From the NCBI RefSeq assembly GCF_000003815.2, contig NW_023365773.1:376882-440881 (forward strand): DNA of 64,000 bases. Direction: 5' to 3'. The notes below the pieces were generated by a model. It was not told the DNA's origin and did not search any database. It saw only the letters and a program-made list of their open reading frames with translations. Positions 8,201 to 64,000 of this stretch are shown piece by piece (position 1 is the stretch's first letter; each line of letters starts with the position of its first letter). Source of the DNA: Branchiostoma floridae. Its lineage: Eukaryota; Chordata; Leptocardii; Amphioxiformes; Branchiostomatidae. The translations under genes were made by a program, and so were the position numbers.

Positions 8201-11200
8201 ACGTGCACCGCAAGATCTGCGTGGAGATTAGTTTATTAGCTCATAAGACGAAAACTTTATAACATGTTTCACGGCATGTTTCATCTTCCTTCCCAACAGC
8301 CATTCTTGTTGCGTTCTTCGTGTACGTGGCGCTTGGTGCTGTGTGGGTGGTCGCCTCGTATCTGTACAGGTACGGATTTTCTCTTCTATTCATTGTCAGT
8401 TTATGTAACACGACAGAAGCTTTTTACAGGCAATAGTTGTAAACGGCACTCAGAGTTAGATTGTGTAGGTGTTAGTGTGGCAGGCGAAACTGCTTGGTGT
8501 GGTACGACAATAAGAAGTGGTTTGTTTGTTTGTTTGTTTGTTTTACCAGGGGGAACATATCGCCTTTTTTAGGCGCTTTTCAATGTGCTCCGGGGGGTGG
8601 GGGCAGACATACATATACTGATACATACATATTAAATAAAATAAGAAGTAACATAACATGACAAAATTAACTTGTCCATCAATACAAATAATAGCAACTT
8701 AGGAATAACCAATACATAATACCATTCTACGATACAAGTAAATCAAAATTGCAATTATGTTACCATAATATGACTCAAAACATAAGTAGAATGAAATGAT
8801 TAGGGAAATGAGTTGACCGGTACACGATAGCATTGAAACATCTCTGACGATTCCGCCCTGTCTTTTTCAGGAGAAGGTTCGGCGGCGAGGAGGACGAAAT
8901 GAGACATCTTCTGATCAACACGGTATGTCTGTATGAAATATCACATCTTACGAATTATCAGCCCAACATGTGGCCCGTTTTATTCAATCGAAAAGCTACT
9001 TAAGGCCGATACCGTAAAAAGCATGTACATATTAACAGGTGTCCGTAAATATAAACGTCTTTTCTAGCTTCCATTCCTTGACTAACATGACCCAAGAAGA
9101 AGTTTTTCTTACCGACAATGACTGGTGTTTTTTCTTGCCTGATTTGTTTGACAGGGTCGCCACAATGACGCCGGCCCTCCGAAGCCGGAGTCTCCGGCCA
9201 AACCAAGACGTCTCAAGTCGCTGGACACCTTCAGAGGGTGGGTTGCCGCTGTCTTATTTGTTTCTTGCACTTTTTTTAGATGTTCGTTCTCGATTGTTCT
9301 TTGTGTGGCGATGCTTTAGTGGAATACAGTATAAAAGTGTTTGGCAAAAGGTATAGGATTTTTCCATGGTTAAACTCAGACCAGCTGACTTCGATCTTCC
9401 AAGCGTAGAATTTTATTGTCTTACAAACAATTATATCTATTTGCTTTTACCCCCTTTCCACTAGGACGGCGCGCTCTCTCTGCGACCTAAAATTTGACAT
9501 ATCGCTCAACGAATTCTATAGAAAAGAAACGAATGTTTTTTTTTTACACTTCATGTGTTTTGTTGTCTTCTCAGTCACACTTTTACGTTTTGCATGATAT
9601 ACCCAGTGTGAAAGCGAAGGTTACACATATCCTATTGAGGTCGCAGTGAGAGCGCAGCACGATCGCCGTCTAGTGGAAATGGGGCCTTATCGTTAAGGCT
9701 TTACAATGTTCGCGTATGTCTCTGTGTCTTTTGGTTGGCAATTGGTTGCCGGATAATACACATGTATAGTAGTTATGTTGCCATGGTAACGGGATGACGT
9801 GGCACGTTGCTATGGTGCCGAGTTACCATGGTAACAGATGACTTGAAACGTTGCCCACAGGATGTGTCTGTGCATCATGGCGTTCGTGAACTACGGAGGA
9901 GGCGGCTACTGGTTCTTAGACCACTCCGTCTGGAACGGTAAGACGCTCGCAACGTCTTGAAGATACTAACTTTGGAATCCTTTTATACACACTCGGGAAG
10001 GAAATTTCACTTTCTAAAGATGCCTTCTCAATATAACCCAGCTGGTGGGTAAACATGGCTGCTAGTGAAAGCGACATTCAAATTGATATTTACTGGTTTA
10101 CCTACAGTTCTTGTCCATCTAAACTATTATTGAATATGATATCCTTTTTTTTATATTTTCAGGTATCACTGTGGCAGACCTCGTGTTCCCATGGTAACTA
10201 GAGTGTTTTTAAAAACCTGTAGTGATTTATTGAGTTATCATATAAAATCATTTTGTTGCCTAAGCGAATTAACTTTTAAATATTTTAAGATATCTTGCCT
10301 TGTCGAGCTTGAATTCGGGAGCTTCTGTGACTGATAGGTAATGGATGCTTTGAACTTGACCCTGCGTTGACCTAATGTCAAAGTTCATGCCCTGCCCCCT
10401 TCAGGTTCATGTGGATCATGGGAACGAGCACCGCGCTCTCGTTCCGCGGGTTGCAGCGCAAGGCCACGCCCAAGCTGACCATCTTCGGCAAGATCGTGAG
10501 GAGGACCATCACCCTGTTTCTGCTGGGACTGTTCATTGTTAACGCACGTAAGTACGGGAAGGGCGTGGTCTATGTAGGCATTGTTTATTATAACTTACTA
10601 ACTGTGACCGTGTGAGGGAACAGTCACATAAGCACCCTCTCCTTCATTATTATTAGTAGACAAAAATTAAGGGATTTCCTAATGGGACCGGAAGGATTGC
10701 ATTTACAACTGATCTGTTGAACCATATCGGTAGCCATCCAATGTGTTAATTCTGTGTATAGTATAACATTCATCGAATGTGCTAAGTTGGCGTTAGGCGG
10801 CTATCATCATAATTGTCTATCTCCTCTGCAGCGGACGACTGGGCCACCATCCGGATCCCTGGGGTACTGCAGCGCTTTGCGGTGTCGTATTTCGCCGTGT
10901 CCACCATGATGCTGCTCCACATGGAGGTCGGAGGACAGGAGGAACACTACTCACGGGTAGGTGCGCTATTGGCTGTTCACAGTCACGTGACGATGACATC
11001 ATTTAGCGTCCGCATTGTTGATTGGTTAAATCATGATGCTGGTCCACATGGAGGTGGGAGAGCAGGAGGAAAACAACGTACATTACGTACGCTATTGGCG
11101 GTTCGTAGTCATGCGACGATGACCTCATTCAGTGCCCGCCATGTTGGATGGTTAAACAGAACGTATCATGCTTTACGGCGTGGGTGACGAAAAGTGCTCA

Positions 11201-14200
11201 TTCAAGTATAGTATTGACTATTCGCAGTCACGTGATCTGGGGCAGCCATGTTGGCGGGTTAAACAAAATTATGTAGGTGCCAGACTAGAAGGCGTTTTAC
11301 GTTGCGTAATTGTTCCTACAGACGGAGTGGTACCGTGACCTGTAACCTTTGCTCTTACAGACGGAGTGGTACCGTGACCTGTAACCTTTGCCTTACACAG
11401 ACGGATTGGTACCGTGACCTGGTTAAACTTTGCCCTTTCACAGACGGAGTGGTACCGTGACCTGTAACCTTTGCCCTTACAGACAGCGTTGTACCGTGAC
11501 CTGTAACCTTTACCCTTACAGACAGAGTGGTACCGTGACCTGTAACCTTTGCCCTTATAGACGGAGTGGTACCGTGACCTGGTGCCGTACTGGAAGCAGT
11601 GGCTGTTCGTGCTCTGTCTGCTGGCTGTGCACACCTGCCTCACTTTCCTCATGCCGGTGCCCGGATGTCCAACGTGAGTGCGGAAGTCTGTTTCTATGGT
11701 GCTAAGCTCTGAATAAGTCTGTTTCTATAGTGCTGTGCTCTGAATAAGTCTGTTTATGAAAATTATAGTGCTGAGCTCTGAATGGGTTATGGGTTATGGT
11801 CTGATTTCAGCCACAATACCAATACAGTGGAAGCCGCTTAATTGCACGCCCAATTTGCCAGCGAATCCCGTGTAATTATCCGGCGTGTGCGATAATGCGA
11901 AGTTACCCAGTTGGACCGCACCGCCACGGGATTTGGGGATTCCGTGCAATTGACCGAAGTGTGCGTTTATCGTACCAAGTCTAAGCAAATGTTGAAGCCA
12001 GATAGTCAGAAAACTTTATGATATCCACCGCAACACTCTAATTGGGGATATGTACAACTGATTAGTTTGACAGTGGCTTGGTTTAGGATACACTTGACTG
12101 GCACAGATTTGGAGCAATGCTGGTAAGAAAACTTTTTGAGGTGGAAAATTTAGTTGACCTCGTCTATAGAAATTATCGTAAGGAAAGTATTCGGTCTTAG
12201 GCTAAGCGATGTAACATTTCTATTTTATATACATGAATCAGCTGCAGTTGCATTATTAACCTGGCTAAAATCGCGCTCCTAGCGGCCGGCCCTACAGTTG
12301 CCACCACCTAGCTATAGGAGGGGGTCATTCACCCCAGCCAGTAGGAGATTGTTACTCTCCAAGCAGAGGTTAGGCTCCGGCTGTTTTTTTAACGTTCTTT
12401 GTTAGTCGTTTTTATCGGGCTTTCTATTTTGTATTTTATCTTGCCGTGTCAAAACCTAACTTGGCTGGCGTACTTCAAGAAAAATTACAAAATAGAAAGC
12501 CCGATAAAAACGACAAAAAAACAGCCGGTGGCTAACCTTTGCTTGGAGAGTAGGAGATTGTGTAAACGCAGGATAGTTGCATCACATGGTTGAACATTTA
12601 TGTTATACAAAAATGTACAGTAGAAACCAGTTAATTGCACAACGGATAACCGCACACTTCTGTTAATTGCACGGAAACCCAAAATCCCATGGTGGTGCAG
12701 TCCATCTTGATGACTTCGGTTTGTTGCACCATCCGGATAAATGCACGAAATACGCTGGCAAATCGCGTGTGCAATTAAACAGTTTTTACTGTACATCCAT
12801 CCGTTCACTTGCTCACTCCTTTCCAGAGGTTACTTGGGTGCAGGGGGTCTGTCCGATTTGGACCATACCAACTGCACGGGGGGAGCGGCAGGGTACATCG
12901 ACAACTGGCTCCTCACTCAGGACCACATCTACGGCGATGAGACACCAAAGGTCAGGATTTTAGTCATCAGTGTTTTCTTTTGAATATCGTATCTTCAGCA
13001 ACACCGTAGGAGTTTTCGTTCGGTTTCTTGATACCGTGGATACTGTACAAAAGTTACGTCGCTGAAGCCAGTAACTGGTTTGTGGCATATAAAAGTTATT
13101 AAACCAAGCCATGTTTTGTCTAGTTGCTTGAGAATCTTACTACATGGATGTCTATTCTTCATTCATTGACGAAACTGCATAGTAGTATTTTCAGATATAT
13201 AGGCGACGGATAAACGTACCCTTTTTTTTAGATATATTGATGATAGGACCAAAAAGATCATTTTCAATCAAGTTTAGATTTCTTGAGAGTGAACGTTAGT
13301 ATGATTTTTTGTCAGCATGAGTACCAGATCCTAGTGAACTATGACCCGGAAGGAGTTCTGGGTTCTTTGACCTCCATCTTCATGACCTTTCTCGGACTCC
13401 AGGTGGGCTGACGTCATTTTTGTGTCTCTTTGGTAAAGTTTAAGTCAGAAACTCCAAAAACGTCATTCAACATTTTGAATCAGGATCTGAATAAAAAAAA
13501 AGCACTTGTATTTAGCAGTAAATGGAGTGTATGAGACTTTATAGTATTCTTGTAATTACTGTTATAATTTACCTACTTATCCATTTGTTATATTATCGTT
13601 ATCATCTTTATCATTCATTCAGAACCAACATTGCAGAAATACATGGACAATATACATGTAGCTTTGAATTACTTTGATCTTATAATACAGTATAACTAAT
13701 TGTCGTTGTCTCTGTCAGCAGGGCTAGCCCTTTGTTATAGCCACAGGCTAGTTGGACAGCCCTGGCTGTCCGTGCTGAACAGCCAAACCAATAAATTTAT
13801 AGATAAATAGATACATCTGTGTAACGCATTGTGGGGATTCCCACTTAGTGAAAAAAAAATTCCTCTCCGTTTTTTCCTGCCCAGGCGGGAAAAATCCTGC
13901 TGTCCTACGAGGACCACGGCAGCCGGCTGGTGCGCTGGCTCCTCTGGGGGATCGGACTGGTAATACAGGACTTTTATTTCTGTTTCTTCATTTTAGTTCT
14001 TTCACGTCTTCTTTGACCTTGAAATATTCTTTGATATTAGTATAAGTTTTCCGATATTTTTTTTCCAATTCACGGCATATATTTGCTTATTTTGAAGCTG
14101 CTTTGTATGATTTACAACATGGTTGAAAACTTTTTATTTTATTTTTGGAAGCGGCCGAAAATTGATGCGCGCGTGGATATCCATATAATCAAATCAACGT

Positions 14201-17200
14201 AGCATTGGTGTTGATGGAGCTTGTCTTTCCTTTATTCATTCACGAGAGTCTGCATGGGGGATTAAGAGGAACGGTAAACTTGGGAAGGCCCAAAGTGCTG
14301 AATGATGAAGTTCGGGAGGTCAGGCAACGCTCAACCGTAAATTCAGTGACTTGCCATTGCAAAGTTGTTTTTCCCCCTTCGAAACGTGTTAATTGCATTC
14401 ATGGGAGTCTGTTCCAATCATGAGACTTGATTGTAAGCGTGATGCAGATTTCTAGATTTAAAGTAAACATTTGTTTCTGTCCGGTACAGGGCCTGCTGGC
14501 GATCCTGCTGTGTGAAGGTCGGCAAAATGGCGGCTGGGTTCCCATCAACAAGAACCTCTGGTAAGGCCGTTCTGGGAACTGGGAACTTTGAACTTCTTAA
14601 ACGTTTGTTACCTTTACACTTTCTTTCCTTGTGATGTATCTTTTCTGTCAGGTAGGTTACAAGAAAATTGGCTACAAAATTAAGGATTTAGAGTTATCAT
14701 TGCGGTAGGGTATGGTCATATAGTTAGACTAAGGGATATCATCCTCCTACGCACGGTCCCCAACGGCACTGCCACAAGGAGTTTCGACACGACTGTGGTC
14801 CCTCTGCGTAGAAGAATGATGGATATATAGATTTATGTATATAAAGAGGTAGTATCTGCATGAAACGATTTGAAGACATTCAGCGAAAAAAATCTGTACT
14901 CCCTAATGACTGACCAAGTCCTGTGATTCCCTTATCCAAGATAAGAGAATGGAAAGTAAACGTGTCTAATATTATCAAGACATTCATTCAAGATTAAGTG
15001 ACACAAATTGTGTTCATGACTATTTGTACTTTTGCTCTTACATAGCACAATTTTCCTTCCCAAAACAGCCCGACGGAACGCCAGTTTGGAACCCCGTCCC
15101 GAAGGCTAACTTCACATTTCCAAACCGGAGCCCGGCTGGGCTGAAACGAAAAATAGAAATGTGTACTAGATCTGTACACAAAAATATACACAAATAATGC
15201 CCACGACTTTTCTCTTTACGTCTTGTGTTCTTTGGTGTCTTTTGTATACAAGTTTTTGGAAATGTGACGTAGGCCTAAAAAGGTTCGTTTTTACCCTGTA
15301 GGTCGGTGACCTTTGTCCTGTCCCTGGCGTCCATGGCTTTCATCCTCCTCTCGGTGTATTACTTCCTAGTGGACGTGCGGAGGTGGTGGACTGGGTTTCC
15401 CTTCTTCATGGCAGGTAGGTACAGTTTGTTTGTTTGTTTGTTTATTTGTGTGTGTGTTACTTCCTGGTGGACGTGCGACGGTGGTGGAGAGGGTTTCCCT
15501 TCTTCATGGCAGGTATGTACAGCTGTTTGTTTGTTTGTTTGTTTGTGTGTTACTTCCTGGTGGACGTGCGGAGGTGGATAGGGTTTCCCTTCTACATGGC
15601 AGGTAGGTACAGCTGTTTGTTTTTGTTTGTTTGTTTGTTTGTCTTTCCGTGTGTTACTTCCTGGTAGACGTGCGACGGTGGTGGACAGGGTTTCCTTTCT
15701 TCATGGCAGGTAGGTACAACTGTTTGTTTGTTTGTTTGTTTGTTTGTGTGTTACTTCCTGGTAGACGTGCGACGGTGGTGGACAGGGTTTCCCTTCTTCA
15801 TGGCAGGTGGGTACAACTGTTTGTTTGTTTGTTTGTTTGTTTGTTTGTTTGTTTGTGTGTTACTTCCTTGTGGACATGTGGCGGTGGTGGACAGGGTTTC
15901 CCTTCTTCATGGCAGGTGTGTGCAGCTGTTTGTTTGTTTGTTGTTTGTCTGTCCGTGTGTTACTTCCTGGTGGACGTCAAGCGGTGTTGGAAAGGGTTTC
16001 TATTCTTCATGGTGGGTATGTGCACTAGCCTGACTAAAATAGCGCTCCTAGCGGCCGGCCCTACAGTTGCCACCAGAAGGGGGTCATTAACCCCAGGCAG
16101 CGAGAGATAGTGTAAACACGGGCTAGTATGTACAGCTATTTGTTTGTTTATTTGTTTGTTTGTCCGTGTATTACTTCCTGGTGAACGTCCGGCGGTGGTG
16201 GACAGGGTTTAGTACAATCTACGGTTCTCACTTCTATGGTAGAGATCATGGTAGGCATCCCGAACGGAGCCTGTAAATTTAGCTACACGGGTATTCCTCC
16301 AAAAGACATCCAGAACTTTTCAACCTCGATTCGTTTCACTGTCCTCAATTGCATTGACTTCAAACTCAGAATTTCGAAATGCGATCTCTGTCACCACCCC
16401 TCGCCAATCTCTGTCAACAGAGGCGCCGATCGCCACCCCTGCCGTCAGAGTCTATCAGATGGTAATCTCTTCCTGATGTATCCTTCCTATCTCCACCCCC
16501 AGGTATAAACTCCATCTCCGTGTACCTGTGTCATGGCGTGTTCCAGAAGTACCTGTCCTTAGAGCCTATCAGATCGCCATCTCTCCCTGATAATATGATA
16601 ACCCCCTCCTGTTCCTCCCCCAGGTATGAACTCCATCTCCGTGTACCTGTGTCACGGCGTGTTCCTGATAATGTGATATCTCCGTCCTGTTCCTCCCCCA
16701 GGTATGAACTCCATCTCCGTGTACCTGTGTGACGGCGTGTTCCTGATAATGTGATATCTCCGTCCTGTTCCTCCCCCAGGTATGAACTCCATCTCCGTGT
16801 ACCTGTGTCACGGCGTGTTCCTGATAATGTGATATCTCCGTCCTGTTCCTCCCCAGGTATGAACTCCATCTCCGTGTACCTGTGTCACGGCGTGTTCCTG
16901 ATAATGTGATATCTCCGTCCTATCCCACCCCCAGGTATGAACTCCATCTCCGTGTACCTGTGTCACGGCGTGTTCCTGATAATGTGATATCTCCGTCCTG
17001 ATCCTCCCCCAGGTATGAACTCCATCTCCGTGTACCTGTGTCACGGCGTGTTCCTGATAATGTGATATCTCCGTCCTGTTCCACCCCCAGGTATGAACTC
17101 CATCTCCGTGTACCTGTGTCACGGCGTGTTCCTGATAATGTGATATCTCCGTCCTGTTCCTCCCCCAGGTATGAACTCCATCTCCGTGTACCTGTGTGAC

Positions 17201-17945: not shown

Positions 17946-18746
17946 AACAGCATCTTCATCAACATATAGGAACAGCATCTTCATCATCCTTTGGACCATC
18001 GTCTTCGCGTCCTACCTCTACTGGAACAGCATCTTCATCAACATATAAAACAGCATCTTCATCAACATATAAAACAGCATCTTCATCAACCTCTAGAAAC
18101 AGCATCTTCATCAACCTCTAGAAACAGCATCTTCATCAACATATAGGAACAGCATCTTCATCAACATATAGGAACAGCATCTTCATCAACCTCTGGACCA
18201 TAGCCTTCGCGGCTTACCTCTACTGGAACAGCATCTTCATCAACATATAGGAACAGCATCTTCATCAACCTCTGGACCATCGTCTTCGCGGCTTACCTCT
18301 ACTGGAACAGCATCTTCATCAACATATAGAAACAGCATCTTCATCAACATCTAGGAACAACATCTTCATCAACATCTAGGAACAGCATCTTCATCAACAT
18401 CTAGGAACAACATCTTCATCAACATCTAGGAACAGCATCTTCATCAACCTCTGGACCATCGTCTTCGCGGCTTACCTCTACTGGAACAGGATCTTCATCA
18501 ACATCTAGGAACAACATCTTCATCATCCTCTGGACCATAGTCTTCGCGGCTTACCTCTACTGGAACAAGATCTTCATCAACATCTAGGAACAACATCTTC
18601 ATCATCCTCTGGACCATAGTCTTCGCGGCTTACCTCTACTGGAACAGGATCTTTATCAACATCTAGGAACAACATCTTCATCATCCTCTGGACCATCGTC
18701 TTCGCTGCTTACCTCTACTGGAACAGCATCTTCATCAACATATAGA
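17881..18746 (+). repeat. HGSNAT: Nested tandem repeat of the HGSNAT coding end and stop codon
   Basis: Downstream of the TAA at 17943-17945 the last codons are repeated many times as a 25-bp unit (aacagcatcttcatcaac, then atatagg or atctagg). A longer unit adds ctctggaccatcgtcttcgc and ggcttacctctactgg. The longer unit occurs about seven times. All lie after the first stop and would be 3' UTR. Confidence 0.93.
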
Positions 18747-18794
18747 GATGATTATACTGGAGAAATAGAGAAATTGCTTTACTTCCAACACTGA

Positions 18795-22647: not shown

Positions 22648-23697
22648 TCAGTAGAACAGTGAGGCCCGTCTAGACCTCCTCGCGGGGGGTCCCGTGGAAA
22701 GTTTGGTCAAAATCCTGCCTGTCCTCGTCTTTTGGACGACGGAAATCGGAACTTTTTGTGCTGGTTTCGGATTGAATCCGGAATTGACGCCAACGTTTAT
22801 AGCCTGCACTTGTTCAGTCGTTCCGAATCCGGATTTTCGCCTGGCAATGAAAGTTTGCAATTGGTCGCTGGATCCGGATGTAGCGGATATTATAGAATCT
22901 TGTAGTCGTGTTCCGGATTCTGATCCGGAACTGGTTCTAGATCCGGTGGATCCCGGTCTATTCCGGATTGGTACAGATGGAATTGTAGATGTACTTTCTA
23001 AAGCTGTTGACGAGGCGTCTACAGGGTTCAGGTAAGGCTCCTCGTACAAGGCGTACTGGACCAGCGAACCCCGGCGGGACACGGAACCGCTCACCGCAGG
23101 TCCTACGATAGATCCTCGGCGGGGAGGTGGACCTGGCCCCGTAGGCCCCGCGAGCGACCCTCGGCGAGAGTGTGAACCCAGCCCCGTAGGCCCTACAACA
23201 GACCCTCGGCGAGACTGAGGGACGGAGCCTATCATCGACGATGTTACAGAGGGTCTCCTTGAGACCGTGCCGACTAGCGAGGACGACACGGACTGCCGTC
23301 GGGACACAAAGCTCGACGACCCCGACTCCTTCACAGAGCTTCTCCGAGACTTTTCGTTGTCGGTCTGGACTCCTGCACTGTCCGACTCCGACTCGCCCGA
23401 CACCGAGGACAGTGTGGAGAGTCTTCGGCCGCCCTCGCCTCCCACCCCGCGGGACGTGGACCTGTGGAGCCGCTGGAGCCGGCTGAGTAGGGCCGGGGTG
23501 ATGAGGTATCCCGGGCCGGTGTCGGGCACGTGGGACTCGCCGTGCGGGTCCAGCTGGCCGGCGGCGGGGACTGCCATGCTCCACCGCCGGTTGGGAACCC
23601 GGGCGTCCGGTGCCGGCCGAGCCGCGTCCTCGGCAGGCTGGAAGGACGAACGGCGGATCCTCTCGTTCCGGAACCCGTCGTCTAGGAAACGGAGAAG
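22648..23697 (-). CDS. Terminal exon of an Arg/Ser-rich protein with repeated R-R-x-S motifs
   Basis: The frame is open from a clear acceptor (cccgttctccag, exon starting at 23697, phase 0) to TGA at 22648-22650, about 349 residues. I do not recognise the family. It is low complexity and Ser/Arg-rich, with 12 R-R-x-S motifs (RRSS, RRWS, RRLS, RRSS, RRQS, RRPS, four RRGS, RRKS, RRAS). Each fits the protein kinase A/G consensus. Six of them lie in a tandem repeat of 14-16 residues of the form SRRGSxxGPTGxGxx. High GC at third positions and the strong acceptor support real coding. An AATAAA on the minus strand (plus tttatt, 22605-22610) lies about 40 bp past the stop. It may belong with the exon at 25012-25562, but that donor is in a different phase, so at least one more exon, perhaps in the gap, would be needed. 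Confidence 0.6.
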   Translation of the reverse strand, partial: LLRFLDDGFRNERIRRSSFQPAEDAARPAPDARVPNRRWSMAVPAAGQLDPHGESHVPDTGPGYLITPALLSRLQRLHRSTSRGVGGEGGRRLSTLSSVSGESESDSAGVQTDNEKSRRSSVKESGSSSFVSRRQSVSSSLVGTVSRRPSVTSSMIGSVPQSRRGSVVGPTGLGSHSRRGSLAGPTGPGPPPRRGSIVGPAVSGSVSRRGSLVQYALYEEPYLNPVDASSTALESTSTIPSVPIRNRPGSTGSRTSSGSESGTRLQDSIISATSGSSDQLQTFIARRKSGFGTTEQVQAINVGVNSGFNPKPAQKVPISVVQKTRTGRILTKLSTGPPARRSRRASLFY

Positions 23698-31073: not shown

Positions 31074-37933
<6,860 letters not shown>

Positions 37934-53800: not shown

Positions 53801-56800
53801 CCTCTGAGCAGTGTGAGCAATTCTGAAGACATCACGTCTCCTCGAAGCAGTCGGGAGCACTCAGATTCTGTCTCCACGTCTTACAGTGGGCGAGAACACT
53901 CGGACTCTTTTGCTACAGTAGTGGACACCAAGGCAGCCAAGCAGGACACAAACAGAGCTGCATCACCCGCTGACAAAACCAGCGTCTCACCTTCACAAGA
54001 AACAAGCAAGAAGCAAACTTCCTCGCAGGCAGCGGCTCCTGAAGAGCAGCTCCTTGGGCTGCCCCTTCCAATGGACACTTGGGAATGTCTTGAGGATGGA
54101 GACAAGGATGAAGCAGCAGTGGAGAAAGCTATAGACTCTACCGAACTGATCGACCAGGGGCTTGAAGAGCAGGAAATTGCCAAAGACGCTGAAGAAGGAG
54201 ACAAAAATATGGTGCCCAAAACTGTTACAGAAGAGAATCCACTAAGCCAGGAAGAAGGGGCTGTATCTGTAGACGCTGCAGTGGTGAATAGAGATGAGCA
54301 AAGAAAGGATGAAAGTCAAAATTACAACAAAGAAGACAGTGAACAAAGAGAACCAGGCAGAAATGTAGAGACAGATAAAGTGCAAGTACACGAAGATGAA
54401 ATATCCGACAAAACTTTGGAAGATGTAAGCAGCGATGAGAGCGAACAGACCAAACAACACACAGAAGGCAGTGACGCACCCCTCACAGACAGTGAACTCA
54501 TCGAAAATCTTCCTTTAGAGCGAACAACAGACACTTTGAAAAATGATGATGACTCAGCTTTGCAAACAGATGATTCTAATAAAAGTTTACCAATAGCAAA
54601 ACCCGAAGGTCCGGTCCTACCAAACTTCTGGCTGATCATGAAGGTCTCCACGGATAAAGTCGAAATGTTCTGCCATGCAAGGAAGGGCAACATGGACGAC
54701 CATTCAACCCTGTTCGAGACCCTTGGCGACAAGATCCGCAACAGGTGACAATGACATGACTCTTGTTTTCTGTGGGTTTGTAAGGCCAGTGTTAGAGTAT
54801 GTTTGCCCTGTGTGGTATCCAGGTCTCACTGCTCTCCAGGCTAAGTGCATTAAGCTGTGCAAAAAGGGGGTGTGAATAATTCTAGATAGAATCTATATAT
54901 ACATGTAGGTTGCTCCAAAACGGGGCAGTGTACATGACAGAGAACTAGGAACAAAGGACAACTACACGCAGTTCAGATATAGAATGTCCAGATTCAAAAA
55001 TAGTACCTTACATTTTATTGTAGTGTTGTTGAATGAATTTTGACGAATTTTGACAGACGTTTATGTCTCATACCCCAATTCAGCCATGTATGGCTGCAAT
55101 GGCATGCATATGCGTACTTGTTTGTTGCAAATAAACCAGTCATTCATTCATATAACAGCTGCAAGCTCGTGAACCAGAAGATGCTTCTCCAAGACCTGCA
55201 CGACACGCGCACCTGCAACTCCCTCTTGGTTGCCGAGGACGACGAAGACATCTGGCTGAAAGACGACTATGGCCCCGGTGGAGGTCTGGACCACTTTTAG
55301 TACATTATATCAGATAAAATTAGGGTTCGTCTTACCTGAAAGCCTTAAACTTGTTAACATATGATAGCTTTTGTGATAACCTTGTCCTCAGCAAGATTGC
55401 GACAAAGTTCTACGATCATTTCCTCTCGCTTTAGTAATTAGTCTTTTTATAGTAAGAGGTTGTTTTTATGTGTTAATCAGACAAAGTCTGGAACTTTTAT
55501 GATGTAAATTCCTGAATCTTATTGTTGACGGATAATATGTGATCATTGACGCATTTCAGGTACACTGAATTTATCTCTGTTCCTGCTTTGTCTTTGAAAA
55601 AAAATCTGAAACCAGGTCAAATCGGGGTCACAGCCGTCAGCGCCGTGGAGGATTTCGCAGAGAAGAATAAGAAGTACCTGGCAGCGACCATGCAGTACAT
55701 GCCCGGGTACTTTGCGTGTGACTGTGTGTGGAGGGTCCACTTCTCCATCCACCAGAGGCTGAAGACTGGACCGGCCCGCGGAGTCTCTCGTGGCCAGCAG
55801 GCCCTGAGATCCGCGCTCTCCGCCTTCTCAGTCAACAACCAGAAGAACATGTTTGTGTTCCAGGTGATGTCTACTTGCAAAATCTTACCACTAGGCTAAA
55901 TGCATGTACTAGTACAGTCTCAAAGTAAGAATAAGGGTAAAGTATGCCAGAAAGCAGTTACTCAAGCAACTGGATATGATTTGGGTTGCTTGAGTAACTA
56001 CTTTTTGGCGTAAACCTGGATGTCTAACCTTTATCGACATAAGGGTAAAGTAATGAACAGTACATAACACTAATATCTAATAAACTGTAACTAAGGTACT
56101 TTGTTGACAATGTATTGTGGGATTTGACTTCTTTGAAGGCAGTGGTTGAGGAACTGTTTAGGTGATCTCTGTGTAAATGGTTAAAGCTCTATGAAATTGT
56201 GAAATAATATGATTCTTTAATTTTAGCCTAATATTTCATAGTGAGTACACTGGGTGATGAAATGTATTTCATTTTCCACTGTAGTCATCGATACTTACAA
56301 AAACTCTGTTAAGCTTGGACATGTTTATTTTCATAGCGGGCCCCTTTACTATTTCTAAATGTGCATTGTTCATGTATTCTTGTGTTCCAGGAGCGTACTG
56401 GGGCAGTGTTCTACCTGCAGCTGTTTGAATCCATGTGTGTGAGCGGGTCACACAACACCCTCAACCTGCCTGAGGTGGGTAACAGCAAAACTTAGTGTCA
56501 CACAACACTCTCAACCTGCCTGAGGTGGGTAATACTAATAGCAAACTTACACAATCAAACTGATTTTGACTTTATTTCTTTTTTCACACAAAGAACTTAA
56601 CATGTTTACTGTGATAGAGGAGTTAGACAAGTCCTGTGAATCTGGGCTGTGCTGTTTGTGATAATCCTCTGTTTTAAGTTTCTCTAAGTCTGTTTTAGAG
56701 CTGATAACAATATGGATAAGATGGTGAAATTTTTGTAACGTTAAGCTTATATTGACAACACATTTCAAGTCACAAGACATGACATGGCTGGAAGGTCAGT

Positions 56801-59800
56801 AACCAACTGGAGAGATTGTGCCCAGGACATACCAACCTGGCGCAAACTCTCGGTGTCTGTAGCCGCTATGCATCAGACTATGATGTCTGCGAATGATTTA
56901 TTGGAGCGTATATTTATTTTACTATGATGTGTAATGAAAGGTATGCAATTAAACCGTTGGCTGGCAAAATAAACAAATTTTTCGTCCATCCAGGTCGGTA
57001 AGGGAGAGGACGAGAACTCTCTCCTCAGCTCCCGAACATCATCGCTCCTCTCCCTCCCCATTCGGGGCGGGGCTGCCGAGCTGGAGGAAGACATCAGGGA
57101 GTACCAGCAGGCCGTGGAGAAGGATTCAGGTGTGGAGACGGTCCCTCAGTCACAGACCGGCTCTACATCCTCCCAGGGCCAGGCTGAGGAGAGTGTGGTC
57201 CTGATGGTGCGTACATCCTTAATTGTTTTAGATGTCAGTAGATGACTCATTAAGACTAGAACACTAGTGAAGAAGGACTCAGGGGTGGAGACTGTTCCTC
57301 AGTCACAGACCGGCTCTACATCCTCCCAGGGCCAGGCAGAGGAGAGTGTGGTACTGATGGTGCGTGGATCCTTAATTGTTTTAGATGTCAGTAGATGACT
57401 CATTAAGACTAGAACACTAGTGGAGAAGGACTCAGGTGTGGAGACGGTTCCTCAGTCACAGACCGGCTCTACATCCTCCCAGGGCCAGGCAGAGGAGAGT
57501 GTGGTACTGATGGTGCGTAGATCCTTAATAATGATTATTGTTTTAGATGTCAGTAGATGACTCATTAAGACTAGACTCATTAAGACTAGAACACTAGTGG
57601 AGAAGGATTCTGTAGTGGAGACTGTTCTACAGTCACAGACCAGCTCTACATCCTCCCAGGGCCAGGCAGAGGAGAGTGTGGTCCTGATGGTAAGTAGATC
57701 CTTAATTGTTTTAGATGTCAGTAGATGACTCATTAAGACTAGACTCATTAAGACTAGAACACTAGTGGAGAAGGATTCTGTAGTGGAGACTGTTCTACAG
57801 TCACAGACCAGCTCTACATCCTCCCAGGGCCAGGCAGAGGAGAGTGTGGTACTGATGGTGCGTAGATCCTTAATAATAATTATTGTTTTAGATGTCATTA
57901 AGACTAGACTCATTAAGACTAGAACACTAGTGGAGAAGGACTCTGGAGTGGAGACTGTTCTACAGTCACAGACCAGCTCTACATCCTCCCTGGGCCAGGC
58001 AGAGGAGAGTGTGGTACTGATGGTGCGTAGATCCTTAATAATAATTATTGTTTTAGATGTCATTAAGACTAGACTCATTAAGACTAGAACACTAGTGGAG
58101 AAGGACTCTGGAGTGGAGACTGTTCTACAGTCACAGACCGGCTCTACATCCTCCCAGGGCCAGGCAGAGGAGAGTGTGGTCCTGATGGTGCGTACACCCT
58201 AGGTTCTTTTATGTAGATGATACTTAACTTGCTTTTAGGACTTGAACATCAAGATAGAGACAGAGCTTGAAATATTTCTAGGTTGGAAACGTAGTTTGGT
58301 AGCCAATGTTGTTGATTTTCATTGTTAAAACTCTTCTCACGATACTTAAAGCTTACAAAAATATATTTTTATATCAATTTCATGTCAGGTAAGAATTTGG
58401 GGATGGAAGGGGTGAAGGTTTTCTGCCCCAAGAAGCAGCTTTGAATCCTGGGATGGAGGGATGGGTTCTGGAGACTGTCCAGATGCAGAGACAGCTTGAA
58501 TGTCTACTGTAAAACTTACTACAATTTGCAAGCACAATACTTGTATAACAGCACATAACACTGTTACTCATTCTCTTCATCAAAGACAACCAAGGATGAT
58601 ACCTTGATGATAAAGCACTGCAGTAATAGACTACTTAAAGTTAGATGTGAAACAGTACCTTGTCTTCTTCAAGTCTATAAGTGACAAAGCTAGAGTAACC
58701 TTACCACAACTTGTGTGTACAGAATGATTGTACAATATAACATTTTTTTTACAGGTGCACGGCGTACAGCCCGCGGGAGCGGAGATCCGAGTGGACCTGG
58801 TACAGATCCTGCAGCACCGATTGGACGACGCCACCCTTGATGTCATCATCCTGATGCTGGCGCGGAACCCGATGTGCCGCCTGTCTCCCGCGGACGTGCT
58901 GTTCATCCAGCCTCCGTCTGAGCTGCCCACCCACAGCCTCCGTCTGGCCATCCCTGGTACATATTATCTGTTTGTTTGTTTTGTTGGTAGTAATAATGCT
59001 AAACTTTATGCCCAAAAGCAGTTACTCAAGCAAAAAGCAGTGACACAACTGTCACTGATGAAAGACATCGGATGATGTCTGAAACGTCTGACTGTTTCCA
59101 AAATCATATCCAGTAGCTTGAGTAACTAACTGCTTTTTGGCATATCTTATTATCTCGATTACTTAAACCTTCATGGATGTTATGCTAAACTTTCTTCTGA
59201 CACAAAGGTTTACAAGGATCAAATTTTCAATGACCAATGTCGCCTTCTTCAGGATCAATACTGATCCTGCAATTTCAAACTGTTACATTGCAGTTTCCAA
59301 TAACGTCATCTTTATTCCTGTATCCCAGCCCAACACTCCTCCCACATCCAGGCAGTTGACTTCTACCTGAAGCAGAACCTCCTACAGTTCCTTCACAACC
59401 CCAAGTACAGCGAACACGTCCACTTCCAGGACGTGGATCGGAAGAGCGTGCCCCAAACCGACCAAGACGTCTTCCTTTACAACCGTCCTCAAGAATCGGG
59501 CGGAAAGGGACTTGCTTGTATCATCCTCGGCCATGTGGACCAGGAAGGTACATGTTGGTTCTAAGATAGTTTTGATTAATGGATTTTTTTCACCTTTATT
59601 TAGCCTTGAGTATACAAAATCAGGGCTCGAAATACCACCTGCAGAATAATTGCAGGTTAGTGCAGGTAAAATTGGAGCTGTGCAGGTATTTCTGGTGTCT
59701 ACCTGCACCTAACCTACACTGGTCCATGTACTGGGTTTTGTACATAAATGTCATATGATGTAGGTGTATGTGGATTGTTATTAGCTGCATAGACTGTTAC

Positions 59801-62800
59801 CTGTCTGGTGCAGGTAATTTTCAGTGTTACCTGCACCAGTGCAGGTATGCAGAAAAAAGTATTTCAAGGATATCTAGCTCGTTTGAATGTTAAGCTGTAA
59901 CCCACCTCAGTTGTTTTTGATATCCATCAAAAAGCATGCAATTTAGATTGTGGCTTCGATATACTTTTTTACCTGATCACAATGATCAAATAAACCATTC
60001 ATTCAATACACATTCAAGGTAACTACATCCAGCCTCCGCCAGCCCCGAAAGTGTCTTCTGACGCCTACAAGGTGGCCATGACGTGGGCTAACTTCAAGAC
60101 GTTGACCGAGACGCACAGACTCGAAGGCGGTTCCAGTCCTCAAGACGTTGGCGCAATTCTCCAGTTCAACATCTGGGAGCGGGGTGACATCGACTTCAAG
60201 CAGCTGGCCGAGAAGCTTAGCCAGGCCCTTCAGCACGCGCTGTGTGATGTCATCACGGAGTACTACATGCTGACTGCACCAATAGCAGAGCTGGAGGAGG
60301 AGGATGGGGAGGAGGAGGATCTACTGGATGAGGAGTTGATGGAGAAATTTGGAGAAGGGGATGTTTCGCCCGTGGAGGGGAGGCAACTGTCGGAGGAAAA
60401 TGGGGAAGAACCTTCATCAGAAGTAAGCAATTATTGTAATTTAAAATCAATTAGACTCATTGTATCTTCTATACTCAATGCACCAGCATAACATCTTAGT
60501 TTGGAATTAATGTGTTTTTTAAATTTAGACTGTTACTTAGTAATGTTACAGTGGTTGGTTAATAGTTTGTTGTTATTATCAATCATTACCATTTAATCAT
60601 TATCGTCTAATACGTAAAACTTTTTAAAACTGAAACTGATTAAAGGTTTAGATCTTTTCCGGTCTCACTAAATACTGTAATGGATGTTTTCAGTAATTAC
60701 TGAAAGTTGTTTTTGGTTGTTTTCGGTTTAGTTTTTGGTTTTTGGTATTTAGTGAGTCCCAATCTTTTCAGGTTTTAGTATTTTCTTATTTTCATTTTGT
60801 AAACGTGTACTTTGTGGAAATAAATAAAATCTGATTAAATCCCACTCCCCAGACGACCCTGACCTGGAAGGACCGTGAGGTAGCCAGGAGGAAGGAGGAG
60901 GATCACAGGAGTCAGCTGTGGAGGCTGCAGTCAGGTTGGACACTTCATTCAATCCAGTAGCTAACATACATAAAAAGGGCTTTCGAAGAGGACTGCATCT
61001 AGACCCTCTGAAATGCTTTTTCCTGCATTTCGAGGGGCAAATTTTGCTGGTAGACTAAGCTGTTCAATGGAGTCTGTTTTGGTGAAAAATTACGCAAGGG
61101 AGACAGTTTTATTATAACGATTTTTGTCCGTCACCGAGGACGGAATGGACAAATTTTTTTTTCCATCCCCAGCTGCAAAATTCCGTCAAAGGACGGGTGC
61201 TGGCTACAAACCTGTTGTTGTGTGTCGATGATTCTCTGGAACTGAGAGATTGTATTCACGACCAGTCTTTCTTTCAGGTTCAGAGGGCGTGCTGCACACC
61301 ATGTACATGGGCAGGGTGCAGAGGTGGTTCGACTTCATGGTGGGTATGAACAGTCCTGCAGTGGTTCGCGACACGCAGGCCGTGGACTCCCGCTACGCCA
61401 TCCCCATCCTCCTGCGGGAGCTCTGCGACCTTGTACACCTCCTCGCAAAGGACAACACCTTACGGGTGTACAAACACTGCCAGGAACAGAACTACACCCT
61501 TCTGAAGGTTCCCAAAGGTAGGCATATTCAAACACAGTTCAATGTCTAGTGGATAGCAATGGAGATTTACTTCTGGAAGTTTCAAGTGACATTTGCAAAC
61601 GATCCTTACATGTTAAACCATATTTTTTATTTCTAGACGTAAGTAGTTCATTCTAGTGACACTGAAGAAGATTGATGGATGTCACTCAAAAAAACATCAG
61701 ATACACCAAATAAGCTTTTTTTTTTAACGAGTTTGCTTATTGTGCAAGGCCATTGATTTTATTGACCACTTCTAGGCACTGAACTACATGTATGCTCACT
61801 GTATCAGCATCTCTTCTACCTAAGGCAGAAACATTGAGTCTTAAGGTGGGGACATACATGCGTATATATTCAAGTCTGTTTGAGGTGCGTATGAAGCTTT
61901 TAGTCTCTACCAGGCTCCACAGGTCGCGGGAAAAATAGTACAAATTGGACAAATATAGATACATAACATGCCAGATGAGTTAGCTGACCGAGAAGTATGG
62001 TTAGCGACCCAGCTAACTCGTCTGACATGTTACCTGTTTACCTTTGTCCAATTTCTATTTTTTTTACAACGACCTGTGGGGCCTGGTGGAGGCATATAGT
62101 CTCATGCGCGCCTCATACGGACTTAAATATATACGCAGGTGTGAACCCACCTTTAGCTTTAGCAGGTAGTTTTACTAACAAAGCAGGTCTTCATCTACAA
62201 CTGTATAAAATCATTTGCAATTCTATAAAGAAAAAAAAAGGAGAATGTTCTAGCTTAATGCTTCTCCTAAAGGCCCACCAAAGTCGGAGGAGGTTTGTCA
62301 CGCCCCTGGACTGGCGGATAACTACATCCTGCTGGCTCGGAGTCTGAAACAGTGGCGAGAGTGCATGGATGTGAAGTATGGGGAGATGGGAGGGGACGAG
62401 GAGAAGGCCATGCCTCCTGTCTCATACAAAGGTAATTCACTATTTACAAGGCTATCATCTATTACACCAGGGTATGTTTTAATGGACTTGAATAGCAAAT
62501 TTCAAGTATGTATTTAGCAACGACGTGTGTGACAACCCCTATATGGTATTTATAGGAAAACACATTAAAGAATTTCTAATCGTCAGTAATTCCTCCATTT
62601 ATTGTAAAAGCCCATTCTCATCTCATAGTACCCATACACTTGACTTGTATTAGCTTTTATGGAACCATAGTTATTTACCAGTAGATGCCATACTTTGTAC
62701 CTTGTGTGTACAATTGTTGTGCAATGATGTTTTAAAAAGTTAATTACAAATTCTTGCAGGTAACATGAGAGATTCAAACACTAAAAAACAATATCACAAG

Positions 62801-64000
62801 TGTCTACTCTAGTCTGAAACCTAACTCTAGATCCTGGGTCATTGGATTCGACTTCTTTTTCGGATGTTATCATAATTATCAATGTTAATGTTAATATTAT
62901 CATCATTCCCAAATGAAGGTGTGCAGAAGTTTAAGGCACAGGAGCGGAAGGCGCAGGATAAGCTTCCAGAAGGGGCGGGGTCGGTACCACGGCAACGGCT
63001 GATGATCGTGGAGATCCGAGACACCCAGATCACGACGTACCAGTACAACTGGGCGGGCGACCTTAGCGTGACCTTGAGACAGCAGCTGGCACAGCTCAGT
63101 CAGTGGCACAACGCAAGGTCACATCTACTGCAGTCACTTCTGGTGCAGAAACTGGGTCTGTTCCATCATCATCCATACCAGGTAATGTACATGTACTATA
63201 CTCACTCAGTCACTCAGTCACTCAGTCACTCACTCACTCACTCACTCACTTACTAACTAACAGTGGCACAACGCTCGGTCCCACCTGCTGCAGTCTCTCC
63301 TGGTGCAGAAACTGGGCCTGTTCCACCATCACCCCTACCAGGTAGTATACTACACTTACTCATTTTCTGGGTATCATCTGTTATTCCTCCTCTCATTTGG
63401 GAATAGACTTGCGTATAGATGTCTTGACTTGATGGCAGACCGCCAGGTACTATAAGATTGACAATGTTTACAATCAATGTTAATTATCACTGAACCTGAT
63501 TATGTTACCTTCACAGAAGGGAACATATTGTTTTTGCTTTGTTTCTTCTTCTTTTCCGCGCAAATAAGGTCAACGACCTGGACCAGACGGTTGTCACCAT
63601 GATAACCGGTAAAGTAGCAGGCACCATGTGGTGTTCGGTTACATAATGTAGCAAATGTCAGATCTAGAGGGGCTCGGGTCACTACATTTAGAAATGTGTT
63701 CAAATAAGAATGAACAAAACAGTTGCCAGTGTTAGACTACAACATGTGAAGGTAACATTCTGTATTTGCTTGCAAATATTACCTTTTTAGTTTCTCGTTG
63801 TGCCTGTTTTTATGTATGTACATCACACAAGTGTTGGTATGTCATTGGAAAGTAAAATCTTACTGTGCTTCAGGTTGAGAATGCAGCGAACCCCTTTCTG
63901 CGGTACTCCCAAGATGCTGACCTCCTCGTGAAGTGTTCCGCTCCCCCCGTGAAGGAGCTCCAAGCCCGCGCTGCGCAGGGGTTCCGCGGGAGTGTCCTGT
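39061..64000 (+). CDS. SZT2: KICSTOR complex subunit SZT2, exons 1-26 (3' end off window)
   Basis: SZT2 is the scaffold of KICSTOR (with KPTN, ITFG2 and KICS2), which brings GATOR1 to the lysosome and restrains mTORC1 when nutrients are low. Exons: 39061-39114, 40021-40170, 41721-41801, 42369-42501, 42911-43095, 43541-43866, 44527-44845, 46086-47028, 47616-47981, 48325-48524, 49533-49622, 50244-52038, 52450-53069, 53456-54744, 55159-55277, 55616-55863, 56391-56474, 56994-57206, 58755-58956, 59329-59547, 60019-60422, 60853-60934, 61278-61517, 62273-62431, 62919-63181, 63874 to the edge. All junctions are GT-AG and in phase, giving about 2,970 codons; from memory the human protein is about 3,400. 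Diagnostic stretches are [69 protein letters not shown] and [16 protein letters not shown]. The start sits in caccaagATGG. Confidence 0.96.
39283..39370 (+). repeat. tRNA-derived SINE-like sequence, SZT2 intron 1
   Basis: ttttggtgttgtggttagca is A-box-like and gtgggttcgaatcccggg holds a perfect B box. It is followed by a T-rich stop (gttgtttctttctgttctt). A proper cloverleaf with paired acceptor stem cannot be drawn, so I do not call a tRNA gene. Confidence 0.5.
41250..41677. mobile_element. Long hairpin element in SZT2 intron 2
   Basis: Outer ends ctccaagcagatgttgtt and aaacatctgcttgtag. Inner arms of more than 100 bp (gaattttcttttacacaact; ttctgcttctcgccgctata) are separated by about 20 bp at 41455. 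It ends 45 bp before exon 3. Confidence 0.85.
44341..44526 (+). repeat. SZT2: Duplicated SZT2 exon 7 acceptor with (ATTC)n tails
   Basis: A copy of the first ~32 bp of exon 7 with its acceptor (ttcattccag, then gcccagcatgtctatgggct) begins at 44371, 156 bp before the real exon at 44527. One base differs in the copied exon. Each is preceded by an AATAAA plus (ttca)n tail (aataaaattcattc at about 44338; aataaaggtctttcattc at about 44452). Confidence 0.9.
44867..45219. mobile_element. MITE-like element starting 21 bp after SZT2 exon 7
   Basis: Terminal inverted repeats agggctctagccagc and gctagctagagccct; inner ttccgtcag/tccgtca words repeat in both arms. A relative may lie at 61110-61215 (tttttgtccgtc, ggctac). 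Confidence 0.8.
45705..45992. mobile_element. Inverted-repeat element, longer copy, SZT2 intron 7
   Basis: Arms gttaaactgttatatctaac/acagtttaac and gaacagcaccagtctttgtc with complements; the middle is unique to this copy. The end lies about 90 bp upstream of exon 8. Confidence 0.85.
46086..47028 (+). CDS. SZT2: SZT2 exon 8 (943 bp)
   Basis: This long exon, acceptor aatcttcag, aligns with human SZT2 across [57 protein letters not shown]-like and [14 protein letters not shown] stretches. It ends AAG CAA G|gtgacc in phase 1 after a Ser/Lys-rich linker. No large insertions are seen relative to the vertebrate protein. Confidence 0.93.
47322..47421. other. Assembly gap (100 N) inside an inverted-repeat element
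   Basis: Both sides are arms of one inverted repeat (agtagttactcaagcaactg on the left, its complement on the right), so a hairpin probably defeated the assembly. It lies in SZT2 intron 8. Confidence 1.
48595..48785 (+). repeat. Dispersed repeat, SZT2 intron 10
   Basis: It shares cctttcaatattgta, agaatagaacctacatg, aaaggtgcttgt, acaagtagacaacatt and tgactttgtctaacatt in order with 52105-52270 in intron 12. Confidence 0.8.
49085..49425. mobile_element. Inverted repeat rich in 'acttgcccg', SZT2 intron 10
   Basis: ggttggacaagttttc at one end and agtggacttgtttatctctg at the other; (a)cttgcccga/tcgggcaagt occurs at least six times between. It ends about 110 bp upstream of exon 11. Confidence 0.65.
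49795..50243 (+). repeat. Retroposon tail followed by a 360-bp (ATTC)n microsatellite before SZT2 exon 12
   Basis: A tail (gtgaataaaatgtcattcatt at about 49850) is followed by impure (attc)n/(actc)n repeats to about 50220. Then atccattccatccccag is the exon 12 acceptor. Confidence 0.85.
50244..52038 (+). CDS. SZT2: SZT2 exon 12 (1,795 bp) with an acidic low-complexity insert
   Basis: This is the largest exon here. Conserved ends ([17 protein letters not shown] near the start; [19 protein letters not shown] and FYCSPRQNR near the end) flank a region of Glu/Lys/Asp-rich sequence at about 50,700-51,250. That region reads as acidic, probably disordered linker (runs of [20 protein letters not shown]) and is not obviously matched in the human protein. 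It ends in phase 1 at ACTACAG|gtaaaa. Confidence 0.92.
52290..52449 (+). mobile_element. Retroposon 3' tail ending at the SZT2 exon 13 acceptor
   Basis: The segment cttacattgtaccccttgc, then aattgttgctcaaataaactttgaatttgac, then tcaacag, resembles the tail at 44295-44350 (acattgtaccttgtgcgatt, gttgagcaataaaattc). It belongs to one AATAAA-tailed family, in sense orientation. Confidence 0.6.
52450..54744 (+). CDS. SZT2: SZT2 exons 13 and 14
   Basis: Exon 13 (52450-53069) begins with an acidic Asp/Glu/Ser run and then gives [12 protein letters not shown] and [16 protein letters not shown], both alignable with human SZT2. Exon 14 (53456-54744) starts [14 protein letters not shown], gives [14 protein letters not shown] and [16 protein letters not shown] at its end, and between them holds about 260 residues of Ser/Glu-rich low-complexity linker. 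Exon 14 ends in phase 2. The acceptor of exon 13 lies 15-20 bp downstream of a retroposon tail. Confidence 0.92.
54760..55152 (+). mobile_element. 5'-truncated CR1/L2-like LINE fragment filling SZT2 intron 14
   Basis: The translation [21 protein letters not shown] followed by [16 protein letters not shown] is the C-terminal part of a non-LTR reverse transcriptase ('RPVLEYACPVW' motif). About 240 bp of 3' UTR follows, ending gcaaataaaccagtcattcattcat. It is in the gene's orientation and occupies about 390 of the 414 bp of intron 14. Confidence 0.8.
55159..58956 (+). CDS. SZT2: SZT2 exons 15-19
   Basis: Exon 15 gives the highly conserved [24 protein letters not shown]. Exon 16 gives [18 protein letters not shown]. 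Exon 17 is 28 codons. Exon 18 carries a Ser/Gln/Glu-rich stretch whose 3' part is amplified downstream. Exon 19 gives the conserved [22 protein letters not shown] block. Exons 17 and 18 both have duplicated donor-side borders. Confidence 0.92.
56447..56531 (+). repeat. SZT2: Duplicated SZT2 exon 17 donor
   Basis: The last 28 bp of exon 17 and its donor (cctgcctgag|gtgggtaa), starting at 56447, recur 50 bp later at 56497 with one difference in the exon part (accctc versus actctc). Confidence 0.92.
57114..58202 (+). repeat. SZT2: Minisatellite across the SZT2 exon 18 donor, six extra copies
   Basis: Copies of gtggagaaggactcaggtgtgg start at 57114 (real exon), 57267, 57420, 57597, 57765, 57930 and 58095. 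Intervals are 153, 153, 177, 168, 165 and 165 bp, all divisible by three. Each unit has the last 93 bp of the exon, the donor (ctgatg|gtgcgt; one copy gtaagt) and intron sequence containing ccttaattgttttag. The last three units read through in the exon's own frame without a stop. Confidence 0.95.
59329..64000 (+). CDS. SZT2: SZT2 exons 20-26 (26 truncated by window edge)
   Basis: Exons 20-25 carry the [61 protein letters not shown] and [24 protein letters not shown] stretches. A Glu-rich run sits in exon 21. Exon 26 starts at 63874 (acceptor gcttcag) in phase 0 with [18 protein letters not shown] and is cut at 64000. Human SZT2 continues for roughly another 400 residues. Confidence 0.9.
59626..59875. 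mobile_element. Element rich in 'acctgca', SZT2 intron 20
   Basis: It starts agggctcgaaataccacctg and ends aaaagtatttcaagg. acctgca/tgcaggt words occur repeatedly in both orientations. Confidence 0.6.
61838..62155. mobile_element. Full-length palindromic element in SZT2 intron 23
   Basis: Outer arms aaggtggggacatacatgcg and complement (cgcaggtgtgaacccacctt), then tctctaccaggctcc-type inner arms as at 3608-3830. It shows what the shorter relatives have lost. Confidence 0.85.
63264..63341 (+). CDS. SZT2: Second copy of the end of SZT2 exon 25, possible 26-codon alternative exon
   Basis: A 78-bp copy of exon 25's last 26 codons (63104-63181) lies 82 bp downstream. It has its own acceptor (tactaactaacag) and donor (CAG|gtagta). 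The two differ at 11 positions, every one synonymous, so both encode the same peptide ([10 protein letters not shown]...HHHPYQ). Phase 0 on both sides means inclusion would keep the frame and add 26 residues. Whether it is spliced in is unknown, and an assembly or haplotype artefact is possible. Confidence 0.5.
63502..63758. mobile_element. MITE-like element in SZT2 intron 25
   Basis: Terminal inverted repeats atgttaccttcaca (63502-63515) and tgtgaaggtaacat (63745-63758). Confidence 0.8.

What the first reader, a model, noticed from the sequence alone, without database searches (positions are those of the whole stretch)
10906..63341. Nine exon borders in two genes are duplicated or turned into minisatellites
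In HGSNAT (exon 11 donor, exon 12 acceptor, exon 17 donor, exon 18 acceptor, stop codon) and SZT2 (exon 7 acceptor, exon 17 donor, exon 18 donor, exon 25 donor) the repeated unit always spans the border and not only exon or only intron. Chance placement of arrays in mostly intronic DNA should rarely hit borders. From memory, 'mirage' minisatellites spanning exon-intron borders were described at amphioxus Adh, so the class may be known. Nine cases in 64 kb suggest a mechanism tied to splice sites or to transcription rather than random slippage.
Basis: partly seen in the sequence, partly recalled or inferred. Interest (0 to 1): 0.9.

Follow-up and report, generated by a model that had tools for sequence, protein, structure and literature searches.

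The report
Repeats straddling exon edges in amphioxus-like genes
In two neighbouring genes of what looks like an amphioxus genome, eight exon edges and one stop codon have been copied into small local repeats, a kind of repeat already described in amphioxus, and one copy appears to have become real protein-coding sequence.

Summary
All nine cases exist. A uniform scan for local direct duplications in the two gene spans found 13 loci: 9 cover a border (8 splice sites, 1 stop codon), 4 do not. The genes are HGSNAT and SZT2. The class is known as amphioxus 'mirages' (PMC3087553, PMC3902484). The enrichment depends on the null: placing whole arrays at random hits a border in 5.5 of 10 loci (8 seen, P=0.06); placing the founder unit, 2.8 of 10 (P=0.0006). 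By base coverage splice sites are not enriched. The stop-codon array shows the rule is not splice-specific. Best explanation: local duplications arise without regard to splice sites; those straddling an edge between selected and free sequence are tolerated and kept, because one copy is fixed by selection while extra copies fall into intron or 3' UTR. One departs: the second copy at the SZT2 exon 24 donor differs from the first by 11 synonymous and 0 amino-acid changes, so it is probably a captured coding exon. RNA, other individuals and the rest of the genome could not be examined.

The parts
5217..17945 (+). HGSNAT gene model, 18 exons, 586 aa plus stop
   Evidence: splice-aware model; residues 31-584 align to PDB HGSNAT 8vkj (taken as human) residues 73-661, E=1.9e-124
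39061..63181 (+). SZT2 gene model, 24 exons within the window (a further exon appears to follow near 63870)
   Evidence: PDB SZT2 matches E=6.4e-227 and 1.6e-116 for two pasted sets of its pieces
10905..11156 (+). e11 donor duplication, 127-bp unit; copy 2 has lost the donor
   Evidence: weak third remnant near 11212-11268, not counted as a copy
11310..11583 (+). e12 acceptor array, 39-bp unit, 7 copies, the last one real
15348..16210 (+). e17 donor array, 8 copies, the first one real, the last one truncated before the donor, spacer (GTTT)n
16438..17816 (+). e18 acceptor array, 78-bp unit, 16 copies, the last one real
17882..18746 (+). stop-codon array: last codons plus stop repeated into the 3' UTR; the first copy is real
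44344..44558 (+). SZT2 e7 acceptor duplication, 2 copies, each after an (ATTC)n tract, the last one real
56447..56532 (+). SZT2 e16 donor duplication, 36 bp twice, 50 bp apart, the first one real
   Evidence: absent from the earlier BLAST and TRF lists
57114..58211 (+). SZT2 e17 donor array, 7 copies, the first one real
63101..63362 (+). SZT2 e24 donor duplication, 2 copies
63264..63341 (+). second copy at the e24 donor: a 78-bp phase 0/0 candidate exon with its own acceptor and donor, under protein-level constraint
   Evidence: 11 synonymous, 0 non-synonymous differences; dS about 1.16 on 18.7 synonymous sites; PDB SZT2 has one copy
11687..11755 (+). counter-example: 31-bp repeat wholly in intron 12
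48592..48803 (+). counter-example: 27-bp duplicate wholly in SZT2 intron 10

Best explanation
These are mirage minisatellites of the amphioxus kind. Short local tandem duplications arise with no special tie to splice sites. One lying wholly in an exon changes the protein and is removed; one lying wholly in an intron is free but can decay or be deleted entirely. One that straddles the edge of a selected stretch (exon to intron, or last codon to 3' UTR) is tolerated, because the copy joined to the exon still yields the ancestral mRNA, and it is long-lived, because that copy is fixed by selection and can seed re-expansion. The extra copies are mostly neutral decoys; read straight on from one, the frame nearly always meets a stop. 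Occasionally a copy is captured as coding sequence, as probably at the SZT2 exon 24 donor. Shown from sequence: the arrays, the borders, protein continuity through the exon-joined copies, and the constrained copy in SZT2. Supported but not decided: neutrality of the decoys. Inferred: actual splicing, random origin, the anchoring effect, the species.
For: 9 of 13 local duplications in the two gene spans cover a border. With the exon-joined copies the HGSNAT model aligns to PDB HGSNAT straight through e17/e18 and, but for a one-residue gap, through e11/e12. One of nine is a stop codon, an edge of selection that is not a splice site. Sites variable among decoys are spread over codon positions 1:2:3 as 4:6:7 (HGSNAT e17) and 2:3:6 (SZT2 e17), neither distinguishable from even (P=0.66, 0.31); the e11 copy differs by 3 synonymous and 6 non-synonymous changes. 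36 of 38 extra copies at the 8 splice borders keep the core splice dinucleotide. Read through unspliced, 22 of 22 decoy acceptors meet an in-frame stop before the real exon; of 14 extra donors (the e24 copy included) 13 lie beyond an in-frame stop and one adds 98 nt, shifting the frame. Mirages with the same features are published for amphioxus globins and PGBD5.
Against: Compared with the real copy, differences of the extra copies lean to the third codon position: 10:13:25 in HGSNAT e17 (31 synonymous, 17 not) and 4:7:38 in SZT2 e17 (38 synonymous, 11 not). Changes of the real copy count once per decoy there, and the decoy-only counts are less skewed, but some constraint on the SZT2 e17 copies is not excluded. 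The stop array leans the same way (1:3:7, P=0.08). The exonic part is better conserved than the intronic part in the e18 decoys (5 of 616 against 25 of 545 sites differ, P=5e-5) and e12 decoys (5 of 128 against 10 of 83, P=0.03), not in e17, SZT2 e17 or e11; plain neutral decay does not predict this, though gene conversion or a mutable pyrimidine tract could. Both-end clustering in HGSNAT introns 11 and 17 is not predicted by independent events. No loss rates could be measured.
Confidence: 0.58

Rival explanations
1. A mutational mechanism tied to splice sites, splicing or transcription (for example breaks or R-loops at exon edges) creates duplications preferentially at borders.
For: Excess over founder-unit and density nulls; two introns hit at both ends; both donors and acceptors hit.
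Against: The stop-codon array is not at a splice site; by base coverage splice sites are not enriched (HGSNAT 4 covered against 9.3 expected; SZT2 4 against 3.3 with e16 included); selection and detection explain much of the pattern. No shared motif beyond splice consensus was noticed on reading the units; no motif search was run.
Confidence: 0.18
2. Mostly chance and selection of the example: exons are dense, arrays are long, and the window was picked because it looks striking.
For: A whole-footprint null expects 5.45 of 10 (P=0.063); two genes, ten loci; the finding was selected after the fact; SZT2 alone gave P=0.07 in the earlier list without e16.
Against: Founder-unit nulls P=0.0006 to 0.008, density null P 2e-6 to 5e-4; the same structure is published independently in several amphioxus genes.
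Confidence: 0.18
3. Assembly artefact: alleles or reads placed in tandem.
For: The window has four N gaps; the draft assembly of a published B. floridae mirage (BflGb6) is described as aberrant (PMC3087553 supplementary legend).
Against: No gap lies in any of the nine loci; copies differ by up to 21%, and at synonymous sites by dS about 1.16 for SZT2 e24, which seems too far for alleles; nested longer periods are typical of minisatellites. Exact copy numbers may still be wrong.
Confidence: 0.04

Closest known systems
Mirage minisatellites of amphioxus (Adh3, BflGb6, BflGb9; similar repeats in PGBD5)
   Same: Tandem units spanning exon-intron borders, at donors and acceptors, many copies keeping splice signals, unit sizes close to the published range (10-72, 60, 108, 150-160 bp)
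   Different: Eight splice borders in two neighbouring genes, introns with arrays at both ends, one array on a stop codon, and one copy with protein-level constraint
Intron or exon gain by tandem genomic duplication (potato RdRp, PMC4974935; Rogers model)
   Same: At SZT2 e24 a duplicated segment supplies an intron-like stretch and new coding sequence
   Different: Rogers' model leaves the protein unchanged; here inclusion would add 26 residues, as exonic sequence was inserted in the potato case; no RNA evidence
Internal tandem repeats at human exon-intron boundaries in segmental duplications (PMC2812944)
   Same: Minisatellite-like units at exon-intron boundaries that can generate novel introns
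   Different: Those are recent primate duplicates with transcript evidence; about half lie in coding exons

Membership tests
Amphioxus mirage minisatellites | Tandem repeat unit spans an exon-intron border | tested here: met
   8 splice borders
Amphioxus mirage minisatellites | Unit size and similarity as published (Adh3 10-72 bp, BflGb6 150-160 bp; BflGb6 copies 81-100% identical) | tested here: met
   spacings 39 to 177 bp, the longest slightly above the published range; 38 extra copies 79-100% identical to the real copy; published values from passages of PMC3087553
Amphioxus mirage minisatellites | Many repeats keep AG/GT signals | tested here: met
   36 of 38 copies
Amphioxus mirage minisatellites | Regular splicing is not disturbed | not testable with these tools
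   no RNA; protein continuity is only indirect support
Amphioxus mirage minisatellites | Length instability between haplotypes or somatic | not testable with these tools
   own-genome search not answered
Amphioxus mirage minisatellites | Genome is a cephalochordate | not testable with these tools
   inferred from the repeats alone
Rogers AGGT intron gain | New intron leaves the protein unchanged | tested here: not met
   inclusion of the SZT2 e24 copy 2 would add 26 residues relative to PDB SZT2

The most novel reading that the evidence does not exclude
In amphioxus, minisatellites anchored on edges of selected sequence are common (8 of 81 splice sites here) and act as a standing source of new exons and introns: at the SZT2 exon 24 donor a border copy already has its own acceptor and donor and has been kept as coding sequence long enough for more than half of its synonymous sites to differ with no amino-acid change.
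Probability: 0.3. Interest if true: 0.72.

Novelty: new member of a known kind. Interest (0 to 1): 0.48.

Why it matters
If about a tenth of splice borders carry such duplications, amphioxus would be a natural laboratory for how splicing chooses between identical sites and how new exons and introns arise. The stop-codon array gives a clean way to separate a splice-linked mutational cause from selection at edges of constraint. The SZT2 case, if transcribed, would be a capture of a border copy as coding sequence, a step that the published mirage model of intron gain proposes.

Tried and rejected
Rejected: allelic or assembly duplication as a general cause (divergence too high). Considered and not supported: mutually exclusive use of the two e24 copies; on reading the sequence I found no in-phase donor directly before copy 1. 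Considered: a duplication of a whole intron with both edges as the cause of the both-end introns; the order of the decoys does not fit. Considered: recursive splicing at the e18 copies, whose CAG|GTAT also scores as a donor (8.2 at 14 of 15 decoys and at the real site, 4.3 at the other); only one of three acceptor loci has this, so it is no general rule and remains untested.

Lists and corrections. The early list of 9 non-stop loci lacked the e16 donor and was replaced by the list of 10. From that list I left out a 23-bp repeat at 42640, a repeat at 49119/49329, the TCAT microsatellite and the 7097/8058 repeat; all four were put back in the 14-locus test. The intergenic rate used 5 loci from mixed methods; the uniform scan outside the genes gave 4 clear loci and 2 weak ones, apart from one row that belongs to the stop-codon array; the density null was not rerun. 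The e18 exon/intron comparison was run on wrongly added counts (614 and 36); the correct ones, 616 and 25, are, and my confidence in the best explanation was moved from 0.60 to 0.58 after the third-position counts were set beside it. Splice-site weight matrices were written from memory. The human sequences that guided the first choice of exon anchors were recalled and then checked against PDB alignments. The e16 border rests on 56474 being the best-scoring in-phase donor (9.4; the in-phase one upstream scores 3.8). In one search one of the 600 controls or more reached up to 26.5, above the e11, e16 and e24 border scores (20 to 26).

Full report
What the window holds. Two genes lie on the + strand. 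A splice-aware model of HGSNAT (18 exons, 5217-17945) gives a 586-residue protein whose residues 31-584 align with residues 73-661 of HGSNAT in the PDB (8vkj, taken as human; E=1.9e-124). SZT2 starts at 39061 and runs towards the window end; 24 exons to 63181 were modelled, with PDB SZT2 matches of E=6.4e-227 and 1.6e-116 for two pasted sets of its pieces. The species is not given; amphioxus is inferred from the repeats.

The nine cases. A border-centred scan of all 81 modelled splice sites and the HGSNAT stop, against 600 control positions outside arrays (99th percentile score 15.5, maximum 26.5), gave nine borders with a match of score 20 to 60 that spans the border: eight splice sites and the stop codon. 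A uniform scan of the two gene spans found 13 duplicated loci, 9 covering a border and 4 not. The simpler BLAST and TRF runs did not list the e16 donor.

Chance. They are not: HGSNAT has 34 splice sites in 13.5 kb, and arrays cover 27% of it, so by bases 9.3 sites would be covered and 4 are; in SZT2 it is 3.3 expected and 4 seen. Placing whole arrays at random hits a border in 5.45 of 10 loci (8 seen, P=0.063), or 4.06 if only single-border placements are allowed (P=0.010). The better null places the founder unit in the gene with arrays collapsed: 2.84 of 10 expected (P=0.0006), 3.62 of 14 with four weaker, simple or dispersed repeats added (8 seen, P=0.008), 2.47 of 9 without e24 (7 seen, P=0.0014). 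A density null expects 0.8 to 1.8 border loci against 8 (P from 2e-6 to 5e-4). All suffer from a finding picked after the fact in two genes.

Anatomy. In each array the exon-joined copy (first donor, last acceptor) must be the functional one, by geometry. HGSNAT introns 11 and 17 carry arrays at both ends and are 74% and 90% array; the chance of two or more such introns is 0.03 for 8 of 81 sites and 0.003 for 4 of 34 in HGSNAT alone. Of 38 extra copies at the eight splice borders, 36 keep the core splice dinucleotide; the e11 copy and the truncated last e17 copy do not. Some score above the real site: 57689 (10.1 against 7.3), four of six e12 decoys, one e18 decoy (the matrices are recalled). 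Read on unspliced, 22 of 22 decoy acceptors meet a stop before the real exon, and 13 of 14 extra donors lie beyond a stop.

Selection on the copies. Among decoys, variable sites fall on codon positions 4:6:7 (HGSNAT e17) and 2:3:6 (SZT2 e17), compatible with free sequence; the stop array gives 1:3:7, P=0.08. Against the real copy the differences lean to third positions (10:13:25 and 4:7:38), in part because each change of the real copy is counted once per decoy. So neutrality of most decoys is likely, not proven. SZT2 e24 is different. Copies 63104-63181 and 63264-63341 differ at 11 of 78 bases, all synonymous, with dS about 1.16 on 18.7 sites. If three, five or all eleven changes fell on a free copy, the chance of no amino-acid change is 0.014, 0.0009 or 2e-7. 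Copy 2 is a phase 0/0 stretch between TACTAACTAACAG and CAG|GTAGTA, with weak but usable signals (3.3 and 4.5). PDB SZT2 has one copy: a one-copy query aligns in one piece, a two-copy query in two that skip the extra one. I read it as a captured coding exon; RNA is needed.

Explanation. The stop-codon array decides for me between a splice-linked cause and selection at edges: it repeats the last codons and the stop into the 3' UTR, where no splice site was modelled. Random local duplication plus removal of exon-only events and anchoring of edge events accounts for the splice borders and the stop alike. Against it stand the both-end clustering, the third-position lean, and the better conservation of the exonic part in e18 decoys (5 of 616 against 25 of 545 sites, P=5e-5) and e12 decoys (P=0.03), not seen in e17, SZT2 e17 or e11.

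Known work. PMC3087553 (passages read) describes mirages in amphioxus globins, cites Adh3 and other loci, reports length instability and proposes a model of intron gain. PMC3902484 (passages) adds PGBD5 and cites troponin C. PMC2812944 (passages) reports boundary repeats in human duplicates, and PMC4974935 (passages) an intron gained by duplication in potato. The Adh3 paper itself is not held. Nine literature searches showed no paper on mirages in HGSNAT or SZT2 and none recognisable from its title as a genome-wide survey of them; some searches listed only 20 of 66, 20 of 36, 20 of 23 and 12 of 1,061 papers, and most subscription journals are not held.

Noticed in passing
SZT2 introns, + strand, upstream of acceptors 42911, 47616, 52450, 55159, 56994, 60019, 60880: AATAAA lies within 70 bp upstream of 7 of 23 SZT2 acceptors (random positions in the SZT2 span: 4.5%, P=5e-5) and of 0 of 17 HGSNAT acceptors; 3 of the 7 also have TTCA runs, as in sense-strand retroposon tails abutting the acceptor. 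8 of 17 intronic AATAAA lie within 70 bp of an acceptor against 2.2 expected; the reverse motif shows 4 of 29 against 3.6.
   Followed up: partly
4393-5009: 56-bp minisatellite, 11 copies, 96% matches, ending about 200 bp before the HGSNAT start codon; it may contain the promoter or 5' UTR edge.
   Followed up: no
1763-2686 (- strand): Reading frame matching UDP-glucuronosyltransferase (Pfam UDPGT, E=8.7e-39).
   Followed up: no
36078-36479 (- strand): Reading frame with a short match to the proteasome subunit family (E=2e-06, above the Pfam cut-off), so a further gene may lie between HGSNAT and SZT2.
   Followed up: no
16503-17764: Each e18 acceptor copy reads CAG|GTAT and scores as a donor too (8.2 at 14 of 15 decoys), so a wrongly used copy could in principle be spliced out again (recursive splicing); untested.
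   Followed up: partly
21442-21832, 23063-23217, 26624-26884: Local duplications outside the two genes; whether they touch borders of other genes is unknown.
   Followed up: no
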